34,591 nt of DNA from a virus. Position 1 is the stretch's first letter. Each line of letters opens with the position of its first letter. The position numbers and the translations under genes are program-made. Below the pieces are notes generated by a model. It searched no databases and was not told the origin of the DNA. It was given only the letters and a program-made list of their open reading frames with translations. Where the stretch lies: the IMG/VR virus record IMGVR_UViG_3300017759_000026, positions 1 through 34,591 of that record. The stretch is one strand, 5' to 3'. This document shows positions 1 through 29,200 of this stretch, one piece after another.

Positions 1-44
1 AGTCTGTCAAATAAATGTGTATTCTTAAATTCAGGTATTTTCAT
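1..44 (-). CDS. Start of an unidentified gene, cut by the window edge
   Basis: Only the first 14 codons are present (MKIPEFKNTHLFDR), reading off the left edge. The ATG at 44-42 shares its A with the TAA stop of the gene upstream (TAATG). That gene's GDLA end supplies the ribosome site GGGAGA about nine bases before the ATG. The same coupling is used throughout this array, which is why this open end is called a gene. Too little sequence is left to assign a family. The N-terminus does not look like the GDLA proteins next to it. Confidence 0.6.
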   Translation of the reverse strand, partial: MKIPEFKNTHLFDR

Positions 45-427
45 TATGCTAAGTCTCCCATACAAATAGAGGTGCCAATATCCCAATCAGCATCGCCGCC
101 CTCAGAGCCATTTCTTCCCATGATACGATGTTCGCTAGTAGTCGCTGTGCTATCTGCTTGTAATTCAGCAAATAAAACATCACCAGATTTGCCGACAGAA
201 ATAACAACAGTATAATCTGCCGCTGCAAAATTAGTTGTAAATTGTGGTTTACCCGATCCTGTATAATTATCAACAAGAGAACTTACTCCAAAACTACCAG
301 TTATAGCTGGTGTCGTTAAGTTTGCTCTTATATGTACCTTCGCACTACCATTTACGACAAACTGTGTATTGACGGTTCCTTGTGAACTGTGCTGAATCTC
401 ATCTGCTACTATTTTACCGTTTGCCAT
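44..427 (-). CDS. Short tail-fibre/adhesin-like protein, GDLA family (127 aa)
   Basis: This belongs to a family of about 130-residue proteins repeated in the window. Shared marks are a central F-G-V-S-S-L-V-D segment near residue 47, an F-T-T-N-F segment about 15 residues later, and the terminal M-G-D-L-A. It has no signal peptide or membrane segment. Similar short proteins occur near fibre genes of marine T4-like phages, so a virion surface or fibre-tip role is inferred, not shown. The start overlaps the stop of the C1q-like gene (TAATG), and the end provides the ribosome site of the next gene. The N-terminus (MANGKIVADEIQ) departs from the usual pattern of an x-L-x-V-x-T-L/I-Q stretch, so it is one of the more diverged members. 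Confidence 0.72.
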   Translation of the reverse strand: MANGKIVADEIQHSSQGTVNTQFVVNGSAKVHIRANLTTPAITGSFGVSSLVDNYTGSGKPQFTTNFAAADYTVVISVGKSGDVLFAELQADSTATTSEHRIMGRNGSEGGDADWDIGTSICMGDLA

Positions 428-903
428 TATCCTATTAACCTTCCATTAAAAAAAGAATAAGATCCCGCATCAATAAATGCATTACTTCCACCATCAGCCC
501 TACCGTAAACTGATACATAATCTCCCTTTGCTAAGGTTTGATATATCTTCATACTGCCATTTAGATAATCAGCATTCGTAGTATCTCCAGTATCAAGTCT
601 TAGCTCTTTTCCAGCTGATGCACCATTTACATATATTTGAAATCTAAATACATCATTTGCATTGCCGCTAATCATGTAATTTTCAAACTCATATACTCCG
701 GCAACTGGCGCAGTAAATCTTCCTGTACTAGTGTTGAAGTGGTTTCCTCTATTTACTCGTTCATTTGTGAAAACAGTTAATTCAGCAAAGCTGCTAGTAA
801 GTGCTAAATTTGTACCCGCCGTACCGACCGCATCAACATGAAATATAGGTAACTCTGGATATAATAATTGACCACCTAAACTTTGTATTCTTGCTGCGGT
901 CAT
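427..903 (-). CDS. C1q/TNF-like adhesin protein (158 aa)
   Basis: Residues ~50-158 have the signature of a C1q-like jelly roll: N-R-G-N-H-F-N-T-S-T-G-R-F-T-A-P-V-A-G-V-Y-E-F near residues 51-73 and an aromatic C-terminal strand (S-Y-S-F-F-N-G-R-L-I). C1q-type domains are trimeric binding modules, found in some phage and bacterial surface proteins. Here the context, between two short fibre-like genes, suggests a trimeric receptor-binding tip. About 25 N-terminal residues precede the domain and may dock it. The start ATG at 903 overlaps the upstream stop as ATGA, and the stop overlaps the next start as TAATG. Unlike its neighbours it ends in R-L-I-G, so it sits inside the GDLA array without belonging to that family. 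The domain call is by pattern only. Confidence 0.78.
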   Translation of the reverse strand: MTAARIQSLGGQLLYPELPIFHVDAVGTAGTNLALTSSFAELTVFTNERVNRGNHFNTSTGRFTAPVAGVYEFENYMISGNANDVFRFQIYVNGASAGKELRLDTGDTTNADYLNGSMKIYQTLAKGDYVSVYGRADGGSNAFIDAGSYSFFNGRLIG

Positions 904-1298
904 GCGAGGTCTCCTACTAATATAGCACGACTTCTTATATCGCCATTAGTTCTATGATTAGATGCATTCCACCATACTGTTTCGAAATGATAGTTACTTG
1001 CTGCTTGCGTTCCATGTGACACATCATGTTGATACATAACAGATGTAGTTGAAGCATGATCATTGCACGCACTCGCAATAGCATAAGATGTTCCATCAAA
1101 GTTGTTAGTAAAATTAACAGCTCCGTCACCAGCACCAGTATCTGTTAACGTACTGACATTAAAACTTTTATTAATTGATGCTTGTCCATCTGCTATATCA
1201 ATGTATGCCTTGACGGTACCTTTCGATACATACTGCATAGCGATTGCATTATTTCCGGCAGTATCTTGTAGTGTTTCTACTTTAACTATGCTAGCCAT
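900..1298 (-). CDS. Short tail-fibre/adhesin-like protein, GDLA family (132 aa)
   Basis: This is a typical family member: N-terminal V-K-V-E-T-L-Q-D-T-A-G, then F-N-V-S-T-L-T-D-T-G-A-G near residue 50, F-T-N-N-F, and the end I-L-V-G-D-L-A. A longer reading from 1328 is possible. I chose the ATG at 1298 because it forms the TAATG overlap with the upstream gene, follows a GGAGA ribosome site, and gives the family N-terminus MASIVKVETLQD. The last codons supply the ribosome site for the C1q-like gene through an ATGA overlap. The function is inferred as an accessory fibre or surface protein; no enzymatic motif is visible. Confidence 0.74.
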   Translation of the reverse strand: MASIVKVETLQDTAGNNAIAMQYVSKGTVKAYIDIADGQASINKSFNVSTLTDTGAGDGAVNFTNNFDGTSYAIASACNDHASTTSVMYQHDVSHGTQAASNYHFETVWWNASNHRTNGDIRSRAILVGDLA

Positions 1299-1708
1299 TA
1301 TGCTAAATCTCCATGTACAGTAGAACACATGAGGTCGTAGTCTGCAATAGATCCGGCATCACTTGTTGTGTTAATTCTATAATGATTTGTGGCTTGCAAA
1401 GAATTGTTTCCAAGATGTGCAAAAAAAGCATCTCCATTCAAAGAACATGATGCAGTTATTGAATATCTTACAGCATTCATATTATTTGTAAAGACCATGT
1501 CGGTTCTACCTGCTCCGTCGTCGGTTAATGAAGATGTGTTAAAACTATCCTGTAAGGTGTGTGTATTACTATCGATAGTGTTATTAGTCCATTGTTTCGC
1601 TAAGCCTTGTTGAAGATTAGTTGTAGTACTGTTACCTTCACCAGTTACAACTACAGAACCTGCAGTAGATCTGCCTTCAAGTTTATTTACTCTTACAACA
1701 CCAGTCAC
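1298..1708 (-). CDS. Short tail-fibre/adhesin-like protein, GDLA family, GTG start (136 aa)
   Basis: The N-terminal V-R-V-N-K-L-E-G-R-S-T-A-G, central F-N-T-S-S-L-T-D-D-G-A-G, F-T-N-N-M and terminal V-H-G-D-L-A place it in the family. The start is a GTG at 1708-1706, overlapping the upstream TGA stop as GTGA, with GGAGA seven bases before it inside the upstream gene's last codons. This is the one array member with a GTG start; the junction geometry is otherwise unchanged. The region between the N-terminal motif and the central motif is longer than in its neighbours, which accounts for the extra residues. The role is inferred from the family and its location. Confidence 0.74.
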   Translation of the reverse strand: MTGVVRVNKLEGRSTAGSVVVTGEGNSTTTNLQQGLAKQWTNNTIDSNTHTLQDSFNTSSLTDDGAGRTDMVFTNNMNAVRYSITASCSLNGDAFFAHLGNNSLQATNHYRINTTSDAGSIADYDLMCSTVHGDLA

Positions 1709-2085
1709 GCGAGATCTCCCAAAATTGCTATACCTGCTTGCGCGTCATCCACAGCAGTTGAAGTTGCATAAGCATATCTCATATCAGCAGCAGTTGTGGT
1801 ATAGGCGGCATCTGGCATCACCGCTCGTACAGTACCAGTCGTAGAACCCCTGTTTCCACAAGCGCCTTGCAGACACAAATAAACTATATCAGAAAATGCG
1901 TTTGTAAAATTATGGATTTTATGACCAGCCGAACTGTCTGTGATTGAGCTGTGGTTCAAAGATTTATTAGGCGGATTTGGACCGTCATTGTCTTGTTCTG
2001 AAAAAGCCTTAATTCCTGCCTGCTTAGTCAGTGTAACTGGACCGCCTGATATATTCTGAATGGTATTTATATTAAGTTGACTCAT
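1705..2085 (-). CDS. Short tail-fibre/adhesin-like protein, GDLA family (126 aa)
   Basis: The protein starts MSQLNINTIQNISGG, has L-N-H-S-S-I-T-D at about residue 50, F-T-N-A-F after it, and ends I-A-I-L-G-D-L-A. A TTG codon four codons upstream (2097) could start a longer form. The ATG at 2085 is preferred because GGAG lies six bases before it and it makes the ATGA overlap with the upstream stop. It is the first GDLA gene of the left array and follows a short AGP-type protein, the same order as at 22900-22685 in the right array. Function unproven; accessory fibre protein by context. Confidence 0.73.
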   Translation of the reverse strand: MSQLNINTIQNISGGPVTLTKQAGIKAFSEQDNDGPNPPNKSLNHSSITDSSAGHKIHNFTNAFSDIVYLCLQGACGNRGSTTGTVRAVMPDAAYTTTAADMRYAYATSTAVDDAQAGIAILGDLA

Positions 2086-2360
2086 ACTACACTCCAATAT
2101 CCATTCACTGTTATTGTAACGCCACTATCAATAGAAACTGGACCAGCAGACATTGCACGATCTGCTGAATCAATTGTGTGATTAGAAGAAACGTTATCGT
2201 TGTTTACTCTAAAAACATCTTTTTCAAAACCGACTAATGATAACGTACTGGCAGAATCAACTCCTCCGCCACCACCACTGCCTGTAGCTCCAGTAACATT
2301 TCTTGGCCGGCCATTAGCGTTAAAATTAGCTGCAATAAATCTTGCTTTTGATTCTGCCAT
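2082..2360 (-). CDS. Short fibre-like protein with AGP/DSG C-terminal motif (92 aa)
   Basis: Three parts are visible: an N-terminal S-K-A-R-F-I-A-A-N-F stretch like the S-R-N-x-x-I-A peptide of other fibres here, a poly-glycine hinge (residues ~28-33) followed by V-D-S-A-S-T-L-S-L-V, and a C-terminal β-rich unit with A-G-P-V-S-I-D-S-G-V-T-I-T-V. The C-terminal unit recurs in the 71-aa protein at 22685 and at the end of the 542-aa fibre at 24224. Units of this type are common at the ends of marine phage fibre proteins. It starts one base downstream of nothing else on this side: the gp19-like gene stops at 2361, directly before its ATG. It heads the left GDLA array. Confidence 0.68.
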   Translation of the reverse strand: MAESKARFIAANFNANGRPRNVTGATGSGGGGGVDSASTLSLVGFEKDVFRVNNDNVSSNHTIDSADRAMSAGPVSIDSGVTITVNGYWSVV

Positions 2361-18556: not shown

Positions 18557-20974
18557 TTAACCGTCAAAACCAGCAGTAGGAGCAGTAAAGTTACCGGTAT
18601 ATCGGCAAAATCCCCAAGTGATTCTCATATTTTGCATGTATCCTATATAATCTCCACCTAGATTTCCTGCATAATTACCCCAATATGCCGATCTTGCAAC
18701 ACTATCTCTTATATAATTAGTGCTGTCAGAATATGTTGATCCTACTTGTGTTCCATTTACAAACATTTTTGTAGAAGTGCCAGTTCTCGCGACTGCAATG
18801 TGATACCAGGTATCTGCCGAAAGTGAACCGCCAGTAATTCTATTACTACCAGCTGTATAATAATACAATGTGCTGCTTGACACATAAAGTGTAGGAATAT
18901 TTTGTGTTCCGCTACCTCTACCATCGTATATGTTTCGAGAACCAGTTACGGAGTTCATGTATACCCAAGCCTCAATAGTAAAATCACGTGTTCCAAATGT
19001 TGTAAGAACATCACTTACCTGTAGATAAGAATTACTTCCATTAAAATAAAAAGAATCTGTCGTGGTAAATTTACGCTGTCCTGTCGAAGCTGAAACACCA
19101 GATGATAAAATTGTAGGACCATCAAAATGAGCAGACGTATACATAGAATTTTTATTTGTAAATGTAAGAACTTCAGTATTTGTTACATCTGTTAAAGGTG
19201 AAGTTGGTGGTGTGAAGTTTGTAGTATAAACTGCTGATCCTTTAACTGATCTTAGATCTGAATAAAAGCCATCTACCTGTGATGTTGCTCCATATCCATT
19301 TCTTCCTACTAAAGGTCGACTTGATCCGGCAATGTAGTTAATACTATCTGAATAGGTTCCGATACTTTTACCGTTTACATAGAATGTAGACGTACCTGAT
19401 ACTCTAGATAATGCTATATGAGTCCAGACATTTGGTTTAAGAACGTTCGATTGAATTCTCCAGCCAGTATTAGCATAAAGTCCTATACCGTCTGATGAAT
19501 TATGTGCGATAGTAATATAGGCACCGTTTCCATTTGTTGGCCTAGCATCAAACAATGTCACGTTAGAACTCGTTGTTTCAGCCCAAAACCAAAATTCAAG
19601 TGTAAAATCATTGGTACCATAGGCAGCGATGCCATCAAGTCGATATGAATTATTAACATCGTTATTAAAGTCTATAGAACCGCCGTGACCTGCTACGGTA
19701 TAAGGTTCGTAGTCATATGGACCAAAACGATATACCCGTGTATTCCCGGCAAGAGTAATAGTGTTGTTATCAGTAGATCCATCAGCAAAATACGAAAGAT
19801 GACATGCCAATAATTTAGTATTTGCTATCGCAGTTAAACGTTTAGTTGGCGCTGTGAAATTTGAAGTATAAACCGCAGTTCCTTTTACAAATCTCACATC
19901 AGTTAAATATCCAGTATACGGATTGGATTGATTTCCAGCAGCACCGATATAAAGAGTAGATGTACCGCTGTAATCTGTACTATCACTTGCATTCGTATGA
20001 ATTGCAGTACCGTTAATAAAAATTTTAGTCGTTGTACCGCTTCTAGAAACAGCTAGATGATTCCAAGTATATGAACTAAATTGCCCACCAGAGGATTGGT
20101 TTGTGAGTGTATTACCTTTATACGTTGTTACTGTACCTCCAGAACTATAATTTAATATTATACCAAATCCAGTTGTTGAAGTATAACTCGAATATGGATC
20201 CATACGAGTACTAGCATTAGTAGTATAAAACCAAAATTCTACTGTAAAGTCACCAGCTTCTGGCACCATCTGTTCGCTGCCATTAGCAACTGTTAACCAA
20301 TCCCCGGTACCATCAAAATATACACTATATCCACCAGGATGATAAGGTGTAAATGGAGTAGAAGGTACACTACCGACTTCAGTAAGAGTTGTGCCTGTTG
20401 ATGACGCATCAACCTGAGTATCTGTTCCATCACTATCTGCCACTAATAACATCGATGTATATCTGGAATATTGAACTGAAAATTGCAATGAAAGCACTCG
20501 AGTGTCGGAACCAAAGCTAATACCATCAGACGCTTTAAAGGTTAATGTAGATGATGTTGTTGTAGCGGAATCTTCACTTCGTGGAGTGATTGTAAATACA
20601 GAACTATCTTGACTTAGTGTGGCAAATCCGTTGAAACTACCGTCTGACTCTACACTGAACGTTAATCCAGCAACAGCATTGTCTGAATCTGTACCAGTTA
20701 ATGTAATAGTAGTGGTTGAACCATCAGTGCTTAATACTATTTCACCGGTAGGACTGATCGTAAGAGCAGGCGTTGCATTTACTAATGCTACATTATACCA
20801 TCCGGATCCATTTGAAATATAAAATCTACTTGTATTCGAAACATATGCCTGGTCACCAGACGTAAGTCCAGTAGTCGGTAAATTTTCTTTTGTTGCATAC
20901 ACTGCCAGACTTGAAGCGCCGGCGCCTGTTCCGTCAATGAGTTCAGCAAGATTTCGATTTCGGCTTTTACTCAT
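18557..20974 (-). CDS. Large fibre/adhesin with three LamG-like domains (805 aa)
   Basis: Domains in order: an N-terminal peptide S-R-N-R-N-L-A-E-L-I shared with other fibres here, then a short Y-A-T-K-E-N-L-P / Y-I-S-N-G-S-G-W-Y unit (residues ~26-65). An Ig/cadherin-like stretch follows (~70-170), then three LamG/concanavalin-like domains at about 213-378, 428-593 and 640-805. Each LamG unit repeats the pattern D-F-T-x-E-x-W, then W-x-H-x-A-x-x-R with F-V/I-N-G, then G-Y/F-x-x-x-x-R. Such domains bind glycans in many proteins, so receptor binding is the likely role. The ATG overlaps the stop of a 54-aa gene (ATGA). The gene is followed by the gp13 promoter. Confidence 0.85.
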   Translation of the reverse strand: MSKSRNRNLAELIDGTGAGASSLAVYATKENLPTTGLTSGDQAYVSNTSRFYISNGSGWYNVALVNATPALTISPTGEIVLSTDGSTTTITLTGTDSDNAVAGLTFSVESDGSFNGFATLSQDSSVFTITPRSEDSATTTSSTLTFKASDGISFGSDTRVLSLQFSVQYSRYTSMLLVADSDGTDTQVDASSTGTTLTEVGSVPSTPFTPYHPGGYSVYFDGTGDWLTVANGSEQMVPEAGDFTVEFWFYTTNASTRMDPYSSYTSTTGFGIILNYSSGGTVTTYKGNTLTNQSSGGQFSSYTWNHLAVSRSGTTTKIFINGTAIHTNASDSTDYSGTSTLYIGAAGNQSNPYTGYLTDVRFVKGTAVYTSNFTAPTKRLTAIANTKLLACHLSYFADGSTDNNTITLAGNTRVYRFGPYDYEPYTVAGHGGSIDFNNDVNNSYRLDGIAAYGTNDFTLEFWFWAETTSSNVTLFDARPTNGNGAYITIAHNSSDGIGLYANTGWRIQSNVLKPNVWTHIALSRVSGTSTFYVNGKSIGTYSDSINYIAGSSRPLVGRNGYGATSQVDGFYSDLRSVKGSAVYTTNFTPPTSPLTDVTNTEVLTFTNKNSMYTSAHFDGPTILSSGVSASTGQRKFTTTDSFYFNGSNSYLQVSDVLTTFGTRDFTIEAWVYMNSVTGSRNIYDGRGSGTQNIPTLYVSSSTLYYYTAGSNRITGGSLSADTWYHIAVARTGTSTKMFVNGTQVGSTYSDSTNYIRDSVARSAYWGNYAGNLGGDYIGYMQNMRITWGFCRYTGNFTAPTAGFDG

Positions 20975-21135
20975 GTGAGGTCTCCAAATACAGCCATAGT
21001 AATTACTTCAAAATCATCAGCGTTTCCAGTACTTAAACCATAAGTATGTATTCTCATTGAACCTGCGGCTTGCGTGCTGGTGTCGACACCAAAGTTGTGA
21101 ATGAGACTTGAGCTAATTTTTTGTTGATCAGGCAT
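20971..21135 (-). CDS. Minimal GDLA-family-like protein ending GDLT (54 aa)
   Basis: A short ORF, MPDQQKISSSLIHNFGVDTS onward, ending A-V-F-G-D-L-T. It fills exactly the space between the preceding GDLA gene and the LamG fibre. Its ATG shares a base with the upstream stop (TAATG, with GGAGGAG before it). Its stop overlaps the fibre start (ATGA), and its own end GGAGACCTCACATGA gives the fibre a ribosome site. About 75 residues of the usual family length are missing, including the F-T-N-N-F segment. It may be a shrunken family member kept for coupling, or a small protein in its own right. Confidence 0.62.
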   Translation of the reverse strand: MPDQQKISSSLIHNFGVDTSTQAAGSMRIHTYGLSTGNADDFEVITMAVFGDLT

Positions 21136-21512
21136 TACGCTAAAACTCCTCCAGGTATGGAGAACGAGTTGTTTGCTCTGTCAATTACACCAGCATTTTC
21201 AACTGTTGTAACAAGTGTAGAACTCGTTGCCTCTTGTTCTGAATAATTACAGTTATGATTATAATTAGCTTCTGCTTGCCCTGTCACAGCAGTTGCGTAA
21301 TTAGTTGTAGAATTCATATTATTCGTGAAATTTGGCCTGTATTTTCCAGTAGCCGCATCATCCACCGAACTTATATTAAAACTGTCCAGTACCGCTGGTG
21401 TGTCATGGTTGTAACGTAGCCAAGCCTTTGCAACCCCACCTGTCACAAAAGTAGAGGCGATCGTAGTTCCTGCAGTATCTTGTATAGTTCCTACTGTAAG
21501 TTTTCCGGTCAT
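21135..21512 (-). CDS. Short tail-fibre/adhesin-like protein, GDLA family, GGVLA end (125 aa)
   Basis: N-terminal L-T-V-G-T-I-Q-D-T-A-G, central F-N-I-S-S-V-D-D-A-A-T-G, F-T-N-N-M, and a divergent end S-I-P-G-G-V-L-A. A longer reading from 21536 exists, but the ATG at 21512 makes the array's ATGA overlap and is preceded by GGAGACC. The altered end is informative: the codons GGA GGA GTT TTA GCG still encode a strong ribosome site (GGAGGAG) for the 54-aa gene. The DNA function is kept while the peptide motif changes. The role is accessory fibre protein by family. Confidence 0.73.
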   Translation of the reverse strand: MTGKLTVGTIQDTAGTTIASTFVTGGVAKAWLRYNHDTPAVLDSFNISSVDDAATGKYRPNFTNNMNSTTNYATAVTGQAEANYNHNCNYSEQEATSSTLVTTVENAGVIDRANNSFSIPGGVLA

Positions 21513-21907
21513 GCTAGGTCTCCCATTGCGTGACACTGCGATAGTCCAACGTCTATCAAAGACCCATCATTCATTACGTAAGAATTTAAAAATATTTCTG
21601 AGACGCTATCTCCACGTAGAGCGTCACAAGTTCTGTTGACATTTCCTGAACCGTTATTCGTTGTAACATTTCTACCAGAAGCCGTACAACAAATTGTAGT
21701 CGTTGACGCAAATGCATTAGTTATAGCGACTTTTTGTCTTCCTGCTGCCGTATCTGCTGTAGAACTTACGTTAAGACTATCACTTATACTTGTACCATTA
21801 GCTAAGCTTGTTATCCAAGATTTTACAACACCATTTACAACCGAAGTAGTAGTCGTTCCATCCGATATGTGTATCGCACCGCCGCTATTTGAAAGTGTTG
21901 CACTCAT
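21509..21907 (-). CDS. Short tail-fibre/adhesin-like protein, GDLA family (132 aa)
   Basis: The central L-N-V-S-S-T-A-D-T-A-A-G, then I-T-N-A-F and the end C-H-A-M-G-D-L-A mark the family. The N-terminus (MSATLSNSGGAIHISDGTTT) lacks the usual L-x-V-x-T-L-Q pattern. There is a run of cysteines (T-I-C-C-T, T-C-D-A, Q-C-H), unusual for the array. The start overlaps the upstream stop as ATGA with GGAGACC before it, and its end does the same for the following gene. Function inferred from family and location only. Confidence 0.73.
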   Translation of the reverse strand: MSATLSNSGGAIHISDGTTTTSVVNGVVKSWITSLANGTSISDSLNVSSTADTAAGRQKVAITNAFASTTTICCTASGRNVTTNNGSGNVNRTCDALRGDSVSEIFLNSYVMNDGSLIDVGLSQCHAMGDLA

Positions 21908-22293
21908 GCTAGGTCTCCGTGTCCTATTGCATATACAAACGCCGGATCTATATACGCAGTTGAACCTTCATTGTACAACATCATCTCTGAATTAGAGGTT
22001 GTTGGATCTGTCTGGCCGGCACCACCAGCAGTTACGAATGTTCTTCCGGTCGTTCCATTTTTTTGACCGTGACTTAGTGCATAATTTACATTAGCAAAAT
22101 TTGTTGTATAGTTTAGACGATAATCGCCTGCACCATTATCTGTAAGAGTAGATACATTCAAAGTATCTCTAATCGCCGGAGTTCCAGTTCCATTAAAGTT
22201 TACAAATAACCTCGCCGCACTTTGCTGAGTCATTGTAACTGGTCCATTACCAGTTGCATTCGATAATGTAGTTACTCTTAGTTCGCTGGTCAT
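21904..22293 (-). CDS. Short tail-fibre/adhesin-like protein, GDLA family (129 aa)
   Basis: This is a close match to the family consensus: L-R-V-T-T-L-S-N-A-T-G, L-N-V-S-T-L-T-D-N-G-A-G-D-Y-R, Y-T-T-N-F and A-I-G-H-G-D-L-A. Its central motif is nearest to the form common in marine phage fibre proteins. The middle-to-end segment (residues ~70-115) is unlike its neighbours and is where specificity would be expected to vary. It is coupled on both sides by ATGA overlaps. Its upstream ribosome site is the variant GGGGAC of the 22290 gene's end. Confidence 0.75.
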   Translation of the reverse strand: MTSELRVTTLSNATGNGPVTMTQQSAARLFVNFNGTGTPAIRDTLNVSTLTDNGAGDYRLNYTTNFANVNYALSHGQKNGTTGRTFVTAGGAGQTDPTTSNSEMMLYNEGSTAYIDPAFVYAIGHGDLA

Positions 22294-22688
22294 GCTAAGT
22301 CCCCTACAATCCTAGCAGTGTTTAGATAAACATCTTGAACAGTGCTTGCCTCATCACCAACATAATAACCAAATTGAGATGTTGACAATATACCATAATC
22401 ATTAGGTGTACCACCAAAGTTACCATCCATTTGTGCCCATAATCTTTGTGTTCTATCATTCGAAGCAAAGGCAAATGGTGCATAAGTTGTGTCTGCAAAA
22501 TTATTTGTAAATGTTACAGTGGACGCACCATTTGTGTTATCGGTGACCGATGATTGATTTAACGAACTATTTACGCTGTACGTGGAACTGCCATCCCATC
22601 TACCATAATATCTATCAGCAACTTGACTAGTCAGGGTAACTGCACCACCTGTTGATGTCTCTACTGTATTTGCACGTAGTGTACTCAT
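22290..22688 (-). CDS. Short tail-fibre/adhesin-like protein, GDLA family (132 aa)
   Basis: First GDLA gene of the right array. Marks are L-R-A-N-T-V-E-T-S-T-G-G-A-V-T-L near the start, L-N-Q-S-S-V-T-D-N-T-N-G, F-T-N-N-F, and the end R-I-V-G-D-L-A. Its N-terminus and that of the 1705 gene are alike, and both follow an AGP-type short gene, so the left and right arrays start in the same way. Aromatic residues are frequent in the first half (R-Y-Y-G-R-W). The ATG overlaps the upstream stop as ATGA. Confidence 0.75.
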   Translation of the reverse strand: MSTLRANTVETSTGGAVTLTSQVADRYYGRWDGSSTYSVNSSLNQSSVTDNTNGASTVTFTNNFADTTYAPFAFASNDRTQRLWAQMDGNFGGTPNDYGILSTSQFGYYVGDEASTVQDVYLNTARIVGDLA

Positions 22689-22900
22689 GCTATCACCAAT
22701 GTTGCGCTATCGTTTAGTGTTACAGTGACACCGCTGTCTATGAAGATTGGCCCCGCAACTAATCCATTGTTAGCAGAATCAAGGGTATAGTTTGAACTGA
22801 ATGTATGACTGTGTTCTCTAACTATATTATCAGCTCTTTGGACATCAGTTCCCATACCACGTATATTTTTTGCAACGTTGAAGTTTCTACTTACTGCCAT
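22685..22900 (-). CDS. Short fibre-like protein with AGP/DSG C-terminal motif (71 aa)
   Basis: It has an N-terminal S-R-N-F-N-V-A-K-N-I peptide, matching the S-R-N-x-x-I/V-A-x-x-I start of three long fibres here, joined to the A-G-P-I-F-I-D-S-G-V-T-V-T-L unit found at 2082 and at the end of the 542-aa fibre. It looks like a minimal fibre: a docking peptide plus a terminal β-unit, without shaft. It stands at the head of the right GDLA array. The role is inferred. Similar AGP-type segments are widespread in marine phage fibres. Confidence 0.7.
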   Translation of the reverse strand: MAVSRNFNVAKNIRGMGTDVQRADNIVREHSHTFSSNYTLDSANNGLVAGPIFIDSGVTVTLNDSATLVIA

Positions 22901-22901
22901 T

Positions 22902-23087
22902 TTAGCCTACACTATCTGCTGCCTCAGGCGTATTACCTGCTGCTATCCATTTTTGATATTCAATATAATCAGTGTTTGCTGAATCAAATGGGAAACTATA
23001 GTTTTCACCAATCACTTCAGCTCCACCAATTACACCACCTCTTACCTTATAGAGTTTATATTTTCTGTTATTTTCTTCTTCTATCAT
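22902..23087 (-). CDS. Small fibre-associated protein (61 aa)
   Basis: A 61-residue protein ending Y-I-E-Y-Q-K-W-I-A-A-G-N-T-P-E-A-A-D. The pattern Y-x-x-Y/W-x-x-W-x-A-x-G-N-T-P-x-x-A-D is frequent in short phage proteins and domains linked to tail fibres. It directly follows the 378-aa fibre (stop TAG, then ATG), whose last codons TCGGAGCTATAG provide the ribosome site. A tip or assembly partner of that fibre is the simplest guess. No enzymatic residues are evident. Confidence 0.7.
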   Translation of the reverse strand: MIEEENNRKYKLYKVRGGVIGGAEVIGENYSFPFDSANTDYIEYQKWIAAGNTPEAADSVG

Positions 23088-24224
23088 CTATAGCTCCGAA
23101 TTAAAAGCTAACCAGGAAACACCGGCTGTACTGTTAACAAATTCTAGTAGATATATACTAGTTACTGCCATGCCACCACTTGATCTAACATATCCTAAAT
23201 CTAAGTTATTACCACCAGAATAACCATCATTATGCAAACCTGTTGGTGCACCACTGTTAGCAGCATTAAACCTACCACCTAAACTAAAATGTGCTAAGTT
23301 AGAATACTCTATTCCTGGAGGAGTTCTCATTGTTGACTCTAAAAAGAATGGACAGTTACCGTTTGTTGCAGACCAATTACTACCCAATGCCAAACCAGCA
23401 TAATTTGCAAAGTTAGAATATCTCTGATAATATCTTTGGCAGCTTTGTCTTTCTTCACCGAATGTTCGATGTTGAAATGCTGTAGCCTGTGTTCCAACTT
23501 GTAATTGCACTCCGGTAATATATAATGTTGCTGCATTTGTAGAGCACACATTGATATGTCCAGGAACTGCATAATCATATGATGTATTCCAACCACCATC
23601 AGTACTTGTACCACCATCAGAATGATCGGGTCCAAGTCCTGTGTACCATTGTACTTTCAATCCAATTGCAGTGCTACCTGCACCGTTCCATGTTCCTGTC
23701 GTTCTTGCAGGAACTGATATAGTTTTATATTCCCAAGTATTTGCAGTATTGATTGTACAATTTGCTGTAAATATTTGTGTATCATCATGATTCATAAGTG
23801 TAAATGGTATTGAACCAGTAACACTACACTTAATATAAAATGAACAAACTAAAGGTTGAGCAGCTGCAGTACCAAATCCAACATGAGCAATATTCTTTGC
23901 TTCAACTCTTTGACCGATCATAGCATATTGTGTGCCGGTAAATGTAGTTGCAGCTTTTGATGTCATTAATAATGAATACCCAAATGCACCTCCTGGTGTA
24001 TCTGTTGATTGTGATATTCTCATTGTGTCGGTCGGATTACCAGAAAAATTAAATCTATCAATTGCATACAATGAAGCAGTTGTACTATCGACATAGGTTG
24101 TACCTTGTGTCAATCTTTGTGCAACATGCATCGCGCCATTGATAATCATATTCTGATTATCAGATTGCGTATGACCACTATTCTTGCGACCTATCATTTT
24201 AGCAATTTGCTGATTTCTGCTCAT
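23088..24224 (-). CDS. Tail fibre / receptor-binding-type protein (378 aa)
   Basis: After an S-R-N-Q-Q-I-A-K-M-I docking-type peptide comes the hallmark N-Q-N-M-I-I-N-G-A-M-H-V-A-Q-R (residues ~23-37). It opens a widespread phage fibre domain of about 250 residues. Within it are a Y-A-I-D-R-F segment, Q-S-T-D-T-P-G-G, T-W-E-Y-K-T-I-S-V-P, and the closing I-T-G-V-Q-L-Q-V-G plus F-G-E-E-R-Q-S-C-Q-R-Y-Y-Q-R-Y (~250-275). The remaining ~100 residues are variable. It shares a TAATG junction with the 542-aa fibre upstream. The exact receptor type is unknown. Confidence 0.82.
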   Translation of the reverse strand: MSRNQQIAKMIGRKNSGHTQSDNQNMIINGAMHVAQRLTQGTTYVDSTTASLYAIDRFNFSGNPTDTMRISQSTDTPGGAFGYSLLMTSKAATTFTGTQYAMIGQRVEAKNIAHVGFGTAAAQPLVCSFYIKCSVTGSIPFTLMNHDDTQIFTANCTINTANTWEYKTISVPARTTGTWNGAGSTAIGLKVQWYTGLGPDHSDGGTSTDGGWNTSYDYAVPGHINVCSTNAATLYITGVQLQVGTQATAFQHRTFGEERQSCQRYYQRYSNFANYAGLALGSNWSATNGNCPFFLESTMRTPPGIEYSNLAHFSLGGRFNAANSGAPTGLHNDGYSGGNNLDLGYVRSSGGMAVTSIYLLEFVNSTAGVSWLAFNSEL

Positions 24225-25852
24225 TAACTTATCACCAAGTTACCGTTGATTGTTAGTGTTATACCACTATCGAATGATATAGGTCCAGCACAATGTGCAT
24301 TTAAACTACTGTCTATTGTGGTATTTATAGTAAGTGTTTGAGGATTAGTTCTGAACATACCACCTAATAATGCGTTACTACTTCCACCGCCGAATTTACT
24401 AACTACCACTACATCGTTTGAATCTGTAGTTTGTGCAAGAACAATTGATGTGCCACTTGTTGCAGTATAATCTTGAGAATCAACAAGTAGGATACCATTT
24501 AAGAAAACCTGTACATTTCCGACATCGTATGATAATGTACCACCGTGTGTCGCAAGTCCACTAAATGTTGTTTGTGGTGATGCAGATACAAATTTATATT
24601 GTGCGTGGTCAGTACCACCTGCTCCAGTAAATTTAGTAATACTTACAATATCGCCAGAATCTGTGGCAACACCTAATACAACAGAATTTCCAGTCGTTGC
24701 TGTATAATCTGCGGAATCTACTAATAAAATACCATTTTGAAATACTATAATGTTTCCAGAATTATATACTAGTGCAGCACCATTATCGTCATTGCCTGAA
24801 ATAGTTGTAGTAGGATGAGCAGTTGTGTATGTAAACGTAGTTTGTTTTGCTTGTGAGTTTACTAAATTCAATGTAGTTGCAGAATCTAGACCACCACCGC
24901 CTCCACCTCCGCCTGAAACAGTAATTGTCTTTGTTGCACCAGAACCAGTTGCAGTTACTCCTGATCCTACAAAATTAAGAGTCGTGGCAGATGTTGAAAG
25001 AGAGGAACCTTCTTCTTGTACAGTAATCGCACCGCCGGATTGTCTTAATTGAATGTATGCACTATCGACAATTGCTGAAATACCAGATGAATCTTGGAAT
25101 CTATCTCTTAATTGAACATATGCGCTGTCAATCAATTGTGTTGTAAGTGCAGAATCTAATGCAGTACCAACAATTGCACTAACCATGGCAGAATCAAAAG
25201 ATAATTGATGAAATGTTGTAAGAGGTGCAATATTGACATACATATATTGATTATCAAACGGAGGTGCATAACCAGCCATAGATGGAGTAAAATCAATATA
25301 ACCTAAATTTGGTGCGCCTCCATACATCGCTCCTGTGTCAGACACAGCAGTGATAGTTCTTGCATCAGCACCACCTGAATTTCGCGCAACCGCCATGCCA
25401 ATACCAAAGTTTTCAGAAGGTAATTGACCTGCCGGAACAATATCAAAGTATGCTCTTGTTATCGTTCCGTTATTTGTTTGCACACGAAAGTTAGTATTGG
25501 TATATCCAGCTCCTGGACCCGCTATATTTGTAAGTACATAAGCATCTCCTCGACCAGCACCACCAGCAAGATATGCTATATCGCCGACTCTAACTTGACC
25601 GATTTCAGCTCCTAAGCCATTATGTTGACTAAGTACGTTAAGTGCACCTATAGAGTCCATTCTGAAAACACGAGGATCTGTACCAGCTGTCCTATCCGAA
25701 TCTGAAGCGGTACTAATAAGTGTGTTTATGCTAGCTGAATCAACTGATAGATCAGTTATAACAATGTTCTTTGAACTTTGAACGAGTGCAGCTATGGCTC
25801 TATTTCTGGAGCGGTAGGTTTTTTCTGATGAACTACCTTTACGTTCAGACAT
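24224..25852 (-). CDS. Modular tail fibre with DSAY and FLNG repeats (542 aa)
   Basis: The N-terminus holds the S-R-N-R-A-I-A-A-L-V docking-type peptide (residues ~15-24). Then come a globular part (~25-210) and two D-S-A-Y-V/I-Q-L-R repeats (~240-272). Next are a segment T-V-Q-E-E-G-S-S-L-S-T ending T-K-T-I-T-V and an eight-glycine hinge (~318). Two ~75-residue F-L/Q-N-G-I-L-L-V-D-S-x-D-Y-T-A repeats follow (~335-490), and the chain ends in the A-G-P-I-S-F-D-S-G-I-T-L-T-I unit. Several modules recur in the 1479-aa fibre with recognisable DNA similarity. It has its own late promoter and an AAGGA ribosome site, with a leader of only ~11 bases. Confidence 0.83.
   Translation of the reverse strand: MSERKGSSSEKTYRSRNRAIAALVQSSKNIVITDLSVDSASINTLISTASDSDRTAGTDPRVFRMDSIGALNVLSQHNGLGAEIGQVRVGDIAYLAGGAGRGDAYVLTNIAGPGAGYTNTNFRVQTNNGTITRAYFDIVPAGQLPSENFGIGMAVARNSGGADARTITAVSDTGAMYGGAPNLGYIDFTPSMAGYAPPFDNQYMYVNIAPLTTFHQLSFDSAMVSAIVGTALDSALTTQLIDSAYVQLRDRFQDSSGISAIVDSAYIQLRQSGGAITVQEEGSSLSTSATTLNFVGSGVTATGSGATKTITVSGGGGGGGGLDSATTLNLVNSQAKQTTFTYTTAHPTTTISGNDDNGAALVYNSGNIIVFQNGILLVDSADYTATTGNSVVLGVATDSGDIVSITKFTGAGGTDHAQYKFVSASPQTTFSGLATHGGTLSYDVGNVQVFLNGILLVDSQDYTATSGTSIVLAQTTDSNDVVVVSKFGGGSSNALLGGMFRTNPQTLTINTTIDSSLNAHCAGPISFDSGITLTINGNLVIS
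24376..24845 (-). repeat. Two tandem ~75-codon FLNG-type repeats in the 542-aa fibre
   Basis: Each unit encodes a stretch ending T-F/I-S-G, then L-x-Y-x-x-G-N-I/V-x-V-F-x-N-G-I-L-L-V-D-S-x-D-Y-T-A-T and a strand V-V-L-x-x-x-T-D-S-x-D-I/V-V. Five more copies lie in the 1479-aa fibre. Confidence 0.8.
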
Positions 25853-25861
25853 ATTACTTCC

Positions 25862-25885
25862 TTATCGGTATTTATAAGTAGTCAT
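25862..25885 (-). other. Seven-codon mini-ORF at a GDLA junction
   Basis: The end of the 25882 gene (GGAGACCTTGCATGA) creates the usual ribosome site and ATGA start, but the frame (M-T-T-Y-K-Y-R) stops after seven codons. The late promoter element lies inside it. It looks like a relic of a former cassette or a spacer; expression is unproven. Confidence 0.45.
25869..25876 (-). promoter_or_regulatory. T4-type late promoter element TATAAATA for the 542-aa fibre
   Basis: Exact element between the 25882 and 25852 genes. Predicted start is at ~25863, giving a short leader that carries AAGGA before the ATG. Confidence 0.78.
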
Positions 25886-26226
25886 GCAAGGTCTCCTATC
25901 ACTGCAACATGATTTTGGCATACTGAATGTGCATTGTCAGCTGTAAAGACTTCAGTATCAACTTTTGCAGTTGTCATGACAATAACTGCAAGACTTCTGT
26001 TAGAAGGATTGGTATTAATACCATTAGATGCACCACCACCACCGGCTACTGGACAATAATATAAATTAGTCATGACAATACTTAAATTTACTTCAACCTC
26101 ATCAGAGTTATCTGTTAAACTAGACACTGCAAAGCTGCCATTTGGATTCGGTGGGTTATCTACAGTGCTAAAATAAACCCATGCCTTTACAGTGTCATAT
26201 CCTCTTATAACATTTATATTTGCCAT
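25882..26226 (-). CDS. Short tail-fibre/adhesin-like protein, GDLA family, isolated copy (114 aa)
   Basis: A shorter, isolated family member between the two long fibres. It keeps F-A-V-S-S-L-T-D-N near residue 32 and the end V-A-V-I-G-D-L-A. The F-T-N-N-F segment is replaced by I-V-M-T-N-L, and the N-terminal motif is reduced (MANINVIRGYDTVKAW). It begins one base after the stop of the 1479-aa fibre. Its end still carries GGAGACCTTGCATGA, although no paralogue follows. It may serve as a tip partner of the long fibre ahead of it; that is a guess from position. Confidence 0.7.
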   Translation of the reverse strand: MANINVIRGYDTVKAWVYFSTVDNPPNPNGSFAVSSLTDNSDEVEVNLSIVMTNLYYCPVAGGGGASNGINTNPSNRSLAVIVMTTAKVDTEVFTADNAHSVCQNHVAVIGDLA

Positions 26227-26227
26227 A

Positions 26228-29200
26228 TTAGTTCTCTATCAATATCCAACCTTGAGTAGTGTTATAATACACTAATCCTAAACCGGCTCTGTTTACGTTA
26301 ATTGTTACATCTGAATCGGCACCTATAATTTTATGACCATTTCTTGCGACTGTAATATTATTTGTCGATGCACTACCAGTCGCATCAATAATTCTAATTT
26401 CATCACCTAAAGCTGCAGACGATGGAAGTGTTATTGTTTTTGCTGCTGATGTATCAATAAAGAGTTTATCACCAGCCACTGCAGTTACGGATGAATCAGT
26501 AGGAGCAGACCACGCATTTGTTCTTAAAGTGTTGTTGTTACTCACAAAAGATGTAATTTTCAGTTCATCATTAGCAAGTGCACCAGACAGAAGTCTAACC
26601 GACATACCGTTGTTTGCTACATAATCATCTGAATCATTCAATAACAAACCATTTAAATGTACTTGAATATTATCTGGGTTGTATGCAAGACTTTTACCTG
26701 TTATATCATTACCATTGAAGATTGTTTGTGCAGAGTCTGCAGTAAACTTGTACATCTCCATATTTTGACCAGGATTACTGAATGCAGATATAATTAACTC
26801 ATCGTTAACTGTTGCTCCACTTGCAAGAACAACCGAAGTGCCATTTACTGCAGTGAAATCTGTATTTCTTAGTATAATACCATTCAAATGAACTTGTATA
26901 GCACCTGAACTATATGCTAATGTGTCACCATTAATATCAGCACCAGTAAATGTTGTCTGACTTGCAGTTGCAGTATATTCATAATTCTTTACTGTAGGCG
27001 ATTGAATTATACCTTTACGATTAACCAAAGTAACAAGATCACCTGAATCCGTAGCACTTGCAAGAGTTACGGTAGTACCAGCATTTGTAGAATAATCGTC
27101 TGAATCCTTCAGTAATATACCGTTTAGGAACACATCAAGAGTACCACTTGAATAATCTAGTGTAACACTATTATCATCTGTACCTGTTATTGAGGTAGTA
27201 GGTGTCGCTGTAGTATAGTAATAATTCTGTTGTGCTAATCCTCTTTGGGTAGCGACACGTCCACGCCTTTCAACAATCGAGACGCTGTGTCCACTGTCGA
27301 CTCCTGTTGTGAAGGTGACTGCTGTTGTAGAGGCATTGTAATCTGTACCGACCACTTGCAAGACACCATTAAGGTAGACATCAAGATGAGTAGCATCGAT
27401 TGAACTATGACTAAATGCAGTTTGTGATGCTGTAGCCGTATACTGTGATCTTTGTGTAGTAAATTCGCCACGAGTAAAGTCCACCTTTGTGCCAATATAA
27501 GCCGAATCAACAGTCGATTGAATAAGTGATATTGTTTGTGCAGAATCAACTGTACCAGATCCTCCTCCACCACCAGCACCTTCTCTAAGTTGTACATAAT
27601 CACTGTCAATTAACTGTGTAATAAGAGCAGAATCCAGACCAGCACTTGTTAATTCACTGTAATTTGCTAATCTTAACCATGCACCTGCATGTGCATAATA
27701 TGCAGCACCAGTAGCATGAACATGTGCAAACATACCGTGATAAGTACTTGCACTTGGTAATGCTCCTAATGAGTCGTATAAGTTACCAAAGAGAACTTTA
27801 TTCCCTTCCATATCTAAATCAGATTTTGTAACTCTTAATCTTACATAAGCAGAATCAATAAGGCTAATTGTTCTTTCAGAATCAAGTGAAACTGATTCCA
27901 CATAAGCTGAATCAACAAAGTCAGTTCCAAACGTAGGTAAGAGCTTTATAACTTCTGCAGAATCAATTCCAGTTGTATTACCACCAAATTTTAGTACTGT
28001 AAGTTTATCACCACCTTCTGCTGCTGCTGAATCAAGTAAAGTAATCGATGTACCATTTGTTGCAGTATAATCAACAGAATCAAGGAGAAGTATACCATTT
28101 AGATAAACAGCAACTGCACCTGCGGTGTATGATAACGAATTGCCGTTATCATCATTTCCAGAATAAACCAGTGCGCCTGAATCTAAGGTTTTAGTAAAGA
28201 ATGTTTGTGTAAATGGACTTGCGGCTACAGAACCGGCTTCTCTAAGTTGTATGTATGAACTATCAATTAATTGAGTAACAAGGGCCGAGTCTAATCCACC
28301 ACCACCGCCTCCACCGCCAGTGGCATCTGACGCTAAAATAAATTTCTGTGTGCCGGAATCAAATTTTAATATTTGGTTATTTGTTGCACCGATAGAATTA
28401 ACGTTACTAAGTGCACCAATACTATCAATTGTTGCATTTATTAGAGCTATTGTTGCGGCTGAATCTGTACCTGCTGTTGTTCTAGCTTGTACGTAGGCAG
28501 AATCAATAAGATTTATAACTGCAGCTGAGTCTGTACCACCAGAAGCCTGCGATATTGTAATTGTTTTTGTAGCTCCAGAACCGGTTGCAGTAACTGCAGA
28601 ACCTACAAAATTAAGCGTTGTTGCTCCTGTAGAAAGACTTGATCCTTCTTCTTGTACTGTAAGCGAATAAGCTGATGGTGTATTCGTGAAGTTGTTATAG
28701 TCAAGATAGAAAGTACCAGTTTGACCATCTAAATTATCAGCATCAATATTTAAAGCATTAGCAAAAGCTTGATCTACATCTGCGGTAATAATTGAAGATA
28801 CAACGGCAGAGTCGGCAAATGAGTTATGATCAAATATTCGAATAGCGCCATGCATTTGTGCATGATATTGACATTGATAATATAGAAGATCTGGCGCATT
28901 CATCGGTACTTCGAAGAATATATCACCTACGGCTGCGCCGTTATTCGTTACACCGGTATTGTATGCACTACCAGTACCAATTACATTATTGGTCTTAATG
29001 TAAAATGGATGACCGGATGCATTAACACTAAACTTATACTTTAATCCTCTTTGTAAGTACAATGTAGGATTTGATGTATTGCCTGAGAAACCGTCGCCAT
29101 CAAAATCATATGCTCCAGAACCATTATTAACTACAGCAAAGGCTGCCGCAGCAGGTCTACGTATCTGAATATACGATGAATCAACAGTGCTTGTTACAAG

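What the first reader, a model, noticed from the sequence alone, without database searches (positions are those of the whole stretch)
20971..22688. Coding-embedded junctions: the conserved GDLA end is also the ribosome site and start of the next gene
At five array junctions the last codons of one gene read GGA GAC/GAT CTA/CTC GCA/GCG (or GGG GAC TTA) then TGA, and the stop overlaps the next start as ATGA or GTGA. Thus GGAGACCTAGCATGA is at once G-D-L-A-stop and Shine-Dalgarno plus start codon. TAATG versions occur at 44 and 1298. Where the peptide changes (S-I-P-G-G-V-L-A at 21135), the DNA still gives GGAGGAG. The GDLA motif may therefore persist because of translational coupling, turning each gene into a cassette that can be inserted or lost without disturbing its neighbours.
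Basis: partly seen in the sequence, partly recalled or inferred. Interest (0 to 1): 0.82.

Follow-up and report, generated by a model that had tools for sequence, protein, structure and literature searches.

The report
Phage fibre genes with dual-use endings
In a row of small phage tail-fibre genes, the last few letters of each gene also act as the "start reading here" signal for the next gene, and this shared joint is one of the two borders at which the presumed receptor-binding tips have been swapped between phages.

Summary
The window is the structural module of a T4-like myovirus; its ~130-aa genes are tail-fibre tips (phrog_11355) packed with 4-nt or 1-nt overlaps. I collected 240 records, mostly with queries lacking the C-terminus. 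GDLA-type ends are followed by an overlap in 497 of 506 copies, other ends in 9 of 91. In 437 non-redundant GDLA copies Gly is GGA (96.6%) or GGG, never GGC/GGT, which make up 65% elsewhere in those genes. When Asp is replaced, GGAG survives in 16 of 22 cases against a 3% background. Distant relatives repeat the rule with other peptides (FGD, GDQ, GAQ, GRLA); most fibres with a distant next gene end in VAIFR-like peptides. So selection for an embedded Shine-Dalgarno is well supported. It is not the whole story: Leu varies only synonymously (0 Phe, 67 expected), so the protein matters too, and Asp and Ala codon biases exceed what GGAG needs. The cassette idea gains direct support: tips 85-99% identical in DNA sit between different heads and different next genes, with similarity ending at an AKAW head/tip border and at the GDLA box. 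Translational coupling itself is inferred. New variant of known mechanisms.

The parts
22290..22688 (-). fibre-tip gene, 132 aa, ends GDLA; GGGGACTTAGCATGA at 22290-22304 overlaps next ATG
21904..22293 (-). fibre-tip gene, 129 aa, ends GDLA; GGAGACCTAGCATGA at 21904-21918; AF2 model made of this one
21509..21907 (-). fibre-tip gene, 132 aa, ends GDLA; GGAGACCTAGCATGA at 21509-21523
21135..21512 (-). fibre-tip gene ending GVLA with GGAGGAG at 21146-21152, TAATG junction; start taken as the ATG overlapping the previous stop
20971..21135 (-). 54-aa gene ending GDLT; GGAGACCTCACATGA at 20971-20985 overlaps the start of the 805-aa protein (18557-20974)
   Evidence: no family match
1705..2085 (-). 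second array: tip gene ending GDLA, GGAGATCTCGCGTGA at 1705-1719, GTG start of the next gene
1298..1708 (-). tip gene ending GDLA, TAATG junction
900..1298 (-). tip gene ending GDLA, GGAGACCTCGCATGA at 900-914
44..427 (-). tip gene ending GDLA, TAATG junction to a gene running off the window
25882..26226 (-). tip gene ending GDLA (GGAGACCTTGCATGA, 25882-25896) WITHOUT an overlapping next gene: natural control
   Evidence: next ATG 29 nt downstream behind TATAAATA at 25869-25876
22685..22900 (-). 71-aa gene of another family ending TLVIA; TTG GTG ATA GCA TGA gives GGTGAT before the ATGA overlap
2082..2360 (-). 92-aa gene of another family ending NGYWSVV; TGG AGT GTA GTA TGA gives GGAG 6 nt before the overlapping ATG
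   Evidence: 86 relatives, TGG followed by AGY in 84

Best explanation
The genes encode small tail-fibre tip proteins: a short N-terminal head, of which the same few types recur across phages, joined at an A-K-A-W motif to a variable beta-rich tip. The last four codons (GDLA) extend just past the final strand and do two jobs. At RNA level GGAGAC supplies the Shine-Dalgarno of the next gene, whose start overlaps the stop (ATGA, about 7 nt spacing; TAATG, about 10 nt). At protein level Leu, and probably Asp and Ala, are also kept. Shown: the overlap, the codon constraint, GGAG kept through peptide change, and exchange of the AKAW-to-GDLA tip between different heads and different next genes. Inferred: that ribosomes reinitiate there, that the tips bind receptors, and that the shared joint is why such exchange is tolerated.
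For: GDLA-type ends coupled 497/506 versus 9/91 for other ends. Gly codon GGA 96.6%, GGC/GGT 0 of 437, versus 65% elsewhere in the same genes; bias confined to the last five codons and stronger than in the adjacent, equally conserved head. GGAG retained in 16/22 boxes with Asp replaced versus 3.2% background. Independent lineages: FGD, FGG, GDQ, GAQ ends when coupled; 11/22 coupled versus 1/68 uncoupled non-GxLA ends carry GGAG. Other array families embed a Shine-Dalgarno in other peptides. Tip cassettes 85-99% identical between different heads and next genes. Leu: 0 Phe versus 66.7 expected.
Against: Uncoupled copies are few and most still carry GDLA, including the one in the window. GAC over GAT (91% versus 36%) and GCA in TAATG junctions (87% versus 37%) are not needed for GGAG. 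About 4% of GDLA-type coupled copies lack GGAG (GGGGAC and the like). No expression data.
Confidence: 0.8

Rival explanations
1. Protein-level reason only: GDLA is a C-terminal peptide needed for folding, trimer packing or docking of the mini-fibre, and the Shine-Dalgarno match is incidental.
For: Leu conserved with synonymous variation only; uncoupled copies mostly keep GDLA; L247 keeps G-x-L-A after losing GGAG.
Against: GGC/GGT never used for Gly; GGAG kept when Asp becomes Ser, Arg, Gly or Ala; the same domain at the end of long fibres ends in VAIFR-like peptides and lacks GDLA.
Confidence: 0.07
2. DNA-level recombination linker first: the box is kept as a short homology at which tips cross over, and the ribosome site is secondary.
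For: Similarity between copies ends at the box and at AKAW; both borders show codon uniformity beyond the protein, across head types; GAC and GCA biases exceed the Shine-Dalgarno need.
Against: The Leu codon inside the box varies freely among four codons, which breaks the homology; heads are codon-conserved by descent anyway, and conserved heads give much longer homology; coupled relatives outside this array type keep only GGAG.
Confidence: 0.1
3. Shared ancestry only: one ancestral array carried GDLA and overlaps, and neither is under selection.
For: GDLA copies are largely one array type; heads show codon conservation by descent.
Against: Tips are diverged (about 27% mean column identity); box Gly, Asp and Ala codons are more conserved than the adjacent head in the same pairs; the rule recurs with other peptides in contigs from unrelated hosts.
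Confidence: 0.03

Closest known systems
Translational coupling by termination-reinitiation at 4-nt/1-nt overlaps with an intragenic Shine-Dalgarno (Huber et al. 2019, PMC6728339; 2023, PMC10666635)
   Same: ATGA and TAATG overlaps; Shine-Dalgarno inside the upstream gene; reinitiation shown by reporters in other organisms, with strong dependence on distance
   Different: Here one peptide (GDLA) is fixed by the site in hundreds of diverged paralogues of a serial array, and the joint is also an exchange border; coupling not measured here
Modular exchange of phage adhesins at short conserved motifs (T-even gp37/gp38; recalled from general knowledge, not read here)
   Same: Variable receptor-binding segments swapped between conserved motifs
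   Different: Borders are a head/tip motif and a gene-end/ribosome-site box, in arrays of separate small genes
phrog_11355 tail fiber protein; Puniceispirillum phage HMO-2011 tail array
   Same: Same domain, same GGAGAC-GDLA-TAATG/ATGA joints, similar gene sizes
   Different: HMO-2011 is a podovirus (general knowledge); the window is a T4-like myovirus
Metaviromic islands of marine phages (PMC3909814)
   Same: Host-recognition genes, and the C-terminal parts of tail fibres, are highly variable regions
   Different: No junction motif or cassette border in the passages read

Membership tests
phrog_11355 tail fiber protein | profile match over most of the protein | tested here: met
   9 of 10 window copies, E 2e-4 to 4e-16; the 54-aa copy has no match
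Translational coupling by termination-reinitiation | start codon overlapping the upstream stop by 4 or 1 nt | tested here: met
   8 GDLA/GDLT and 1 GVLA junctions in the window; 493 of 502 collected GDLA-like copies
Translational coupling by termination-reinitiation | Shine-Dalgarno inside the upstream gene at usable spacing | tested here: met
   4 nt or longer match in 95.5% of family junctions versus 26% of internal ATGs
Translational coupling by termination-reinitiation | downstream translation depends on translation of the upstream gene | not testable with these tools
   needs reporters or ribosome profiling
Motif-bounded exchange of phage adhesin segments | same variable segment found between different flanks, borders at conserved motifs | tested here: met
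   about 20 pairs, 85-99% DNA identity, borders at AKAW and the GDLA box
Motif-bounded exchange of phage adhesin segments | segment determines receptor specificity | not testable with these tools
   inferred from tail-fibre annotation only
C1q/TNF-like trimeric jelly-roll tip | fold match to solved structures | tested here: inconclusive
   best Z 6.5 (rmsd 3.2, 88 residues) to phiAB6 tailspike end domain, then EDA, PRD1 P5 and C1q at 4.6-4.8; all under 8
T4-like myovirus (the window) | T4-type major head protein, portal, sheath and terminase | tested here: met
   phrog_138, 213, 23 and 2; that these are T4-type is general knowledge; TATAAATA 10 times, all on the coding strand, 4.2 expected on both

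The most novel reading that the evidence does not exclude
Marine phages keep a shared plug-in format for receptor-binding tips: two short borders (AKAW-coding DNA on the left, the GDLA/ribosome-site box on the right) held nearly constant at DNA level across heads, array positions and phage types, so that a tip can be dropped into almost any slot and still be translated in step with its neighbours.
Probability: 0.35. Interest if true: 0.78.

Novelty: new variant of a known kind. Interest (0 to 1): 0.62.

Why it matters
A C-terminal motif that looks like a conserved functional peptide turns out to be shaped in large part by the ribosome site of the next gene, so motif-based annotation would misread it. 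It also gives a concrete anatomy for how abundant marine phages could exchange host-recognition tips without breaking expression of the rest of the array, and a simple sequence handle (AKAW to GDLA) for counting tips and swaps in metagenomes.

Tried and rejected
A profile from all nine window copies had no stretch conserved enough for a collection scan, so single trimmed proteins were used. Scans with window 903-1298 and 25909-26226 found two and no relatives. Pfam gave nothing above its cut-offs; no solved structure matched by sequence; Foldseek against PDB had nothing below E 0.25. A paper search for GDLA and phage found nothing relevant. I looked for the tip domain inside longer proteins, followed by other domains, as a further test of GDLA: one weak, uninformative case. 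I considered that the box belongs to the downstream head only: its Leu codon is linked to both sides, so this was dropped. The GAC preference was not explained by any idea tried; a lucky type IIS site (GAGACC) was dismissed as a by-product of GGA GAC C. No tree of the tips was built: they are too diverged, so independence rests on the distant lineages and on the within-pair comparisons.

Full report
WHAT IS THERE. The window is a T4-like myovirus structural module: major head protein, portal, sheath and terminase match phrog_138, 213, 23 and 2, and all ten TATAAATA late-promoter-like boxes lie on the coding (minus) strand. The finding covers one of two arrays of ~130-aa genes (20971-22688; the other is 44-2085). 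Nine of ten copies match phrog_11355, 'tail fiber protein'.

COLLECTING RELATIVES WITHOUT BIAS. Four scans of viral contigs used queries with the C-terminus removed, giving, with three phage records and the window, 240 records and 605 unique copies with a stop codon. GDLA-type ends are followed by a 4-nt or 1-nt overlap in 497 of 506 cases; all other ends in 9 of 91 (Fisher p = 2e-79). Copies with other ends typically finish in V-A-I-F-R or similar, and many have a separate Shine-Dalgarno in the gap. All 24 ORFs over 250 aa that carry this domain at their end lack GDLA, so the domain as such does not require it. The raw p value ignores shared ancestry; the tests below do not rest on it.

NUCLEOTIDE-LEVEL CONSTRAINT. 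In 437 non-redundant GDLA copies Gly is GGA 96.6%, GGG 3.4%, GGC and GGT 0%; in the same genes elsewhere GGA is 23% and GGC+GGT 65%. Synonymous bias is below 0.17 bits from codon -14 to -8, about 0.2 at -7, 0.5 for His at -5, and then 1.90, 0.97, 1.43 and 0.98 bits at G, D, L and A. Because the heads are also codon-conserved by descent (mean 0.8-1.2 bits), I compared pairs sharing a next-head type: at 50-90% head identity, codon identity is 0.42-0.58 in the head but 0.86-0.95 at box Gly, 0.76-0.91 at Asp and 0.85-0.93 at Ala. When Asp is replaced, GGAG is still present in 16 of 22 boxes, against 3.2% of comparable Gly dicodons elsewhere. These include G-S-L-A as GGG AGT and, in a Cohaesibacteraceae MAG contig (L267), G-R-L-A as GGG AGG. 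A further copy, S-E-L-A as TCG GAG, keeps GGAG in another register.

INDEPENDENT LINEAGES. In contigs of bacterial and archaeal MAGs and genomes, distant tips end F-G-D, F-G-G, G-D-Q or G-A-Q, all giving GGAG, when the next ATG is at -1 to +1; ends such as IFR, VIR and VFC go with gaps of 7 or more; one GDQ copy (L272) is uncoupled. Among copies that are not GxLA-type, 11 of 22 coupled ones have GGAG in the last 15 coding bases, against 1 of 68 clearly uncoupled ones (p = 2e-7). Other families in the same arrays solve the problem with other strings: N-G-Y-W-S-I-V (TGG AGY), T-L-V-I-A (TTG GTG ATA) and M-E-I-T (GGAGAT). Family junctions have a 4-nt or longer Shine-Dalgarno match in 95.5% of cases, other overlaps 74-84%, internal ATGs 26%.

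PROTEIN-LEVEL CONSTRAINT AS WELL. At the Leu codon the first base is C or T and the third A, C or T, yet Phe never appears where 66.7 would be expected if positions varied freely. Asp is most often replaced by Glu. The few uncoupled copies mostly keep GDLA. In L247, a relative of the window, the tip in front of the same TATAAATA promoter ends G-T-L-A with GGAACG: the ribosome site is gone but G-x-L-A remains. That single case fits both constraints. In the AF2 model (mean pLDDT 85.6) the last strand is 119-125 and GDLA follows it; fold matches are weak, best Z 6.5 to the end domain of phiAB6 tailspike, then C1q/TNF-like jelly rolls.

CASSETTE EXCHANGE. All-against-all DNA comparison shows similarity between copies ending at the head/tip border (260-330 nt before the stop), at the stop codon, or at the head/tip border of the next gene, and rarely inside a tip. 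About 20 pairs, not all independent, have near-identical tips (85-99% DNA identity) between different heads and different next genes, from around A-K-A-W to the box: for example L045/L076, 98.1% from -315 to +4, and L190/L222, 99.3% from -282 to 0. Since every copy shares the box, similarity will always run through it, so the exact crossover point cannot be placed inside it. The Leu codon of the box matches the tip partner in 52%, the next-head partner in 63% and random pairs in 33%, so crossovers lie on both sides of, or within, the box. L247 carries several of the window's modules in another order, and its 378-aa fibre gene follows a GDLA-ATGA junction whereas in the window it follows LVIS-TAATG. 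The A-K-A-W codons are also fairly uniform across head types (GCG AAG), but descent may explain that.

MECHANISM AND LIMITS. Published reporter work shows that such overlaps are tightly coupled, that an intragenic Shine-Dalgarno raises reinitiation in most but not all pairs (PMC6728339), and that about 20 nt of spacing almost abolishes it (PMC10666635). No expression was measured here, so coupling in these phages is inferred. The GAC bias (91% versus 36%) and GCA in TAATG junctions (87% versus 37%) remain unexplained by GGAG alone.

VERDICT. It works like known termination-reinitiation joints and like known adhesin module exchange; the combination, in arrays shared by a T4-like myovirus and HMO-2011-type phages, is what I found no description of in the held papers (seven full-text searches, so absence is weak evidence).

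Noticed in passing
25861-25896: After the uncoupled GDLA copy, the overlapping ATG opens a 7-codon frame (M-T-T-Y-K-Y-R) running through the TATAAATA box; L247 has M-I-N-Y-K-Y-R at the same place. Possibly just the promoter's constraint.
   Followed up: partly
box Asp and Ala codons, all GDLA loci: GAC is used 91% (36% elsewhere in the genes) and GCA 87% even in TAATG junctions; neither is needed for GGAG. Leu avoids CTG and TTG.
   Followed up: partly
His codon before the box (position -5): CAC is preferred 86% versus 45% background; CAT GGA would create an out-of-frame ATG on top of the ribosome site.
   Followed up: no
window arrays versus L008 (HMO-2011): The same fibre-tip array with the same joints occurs in a T4-like myovirus and in HMO-2011, suggesting transfer between phage types.
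   Followed up: partly
L247 versus window 22906-27722: A related phage contig carries several of the same fibre modules in a different order, about 76-92% DNA identity, with breaks at gene junctions.
   Followed up: partly
A-K-A-W motif, tip genes: Codons at the head/tip border are uniform across head types (GCG 70%, AAG 77%) and the bias stops abruptly after Trp.
   Followed up: partly
L009 2998-3375: A fibre tip of this family in Microcystis phage Mel-JY33 is annotated 'putative alpha amylase', probably a misannotation.
   Followed up: no
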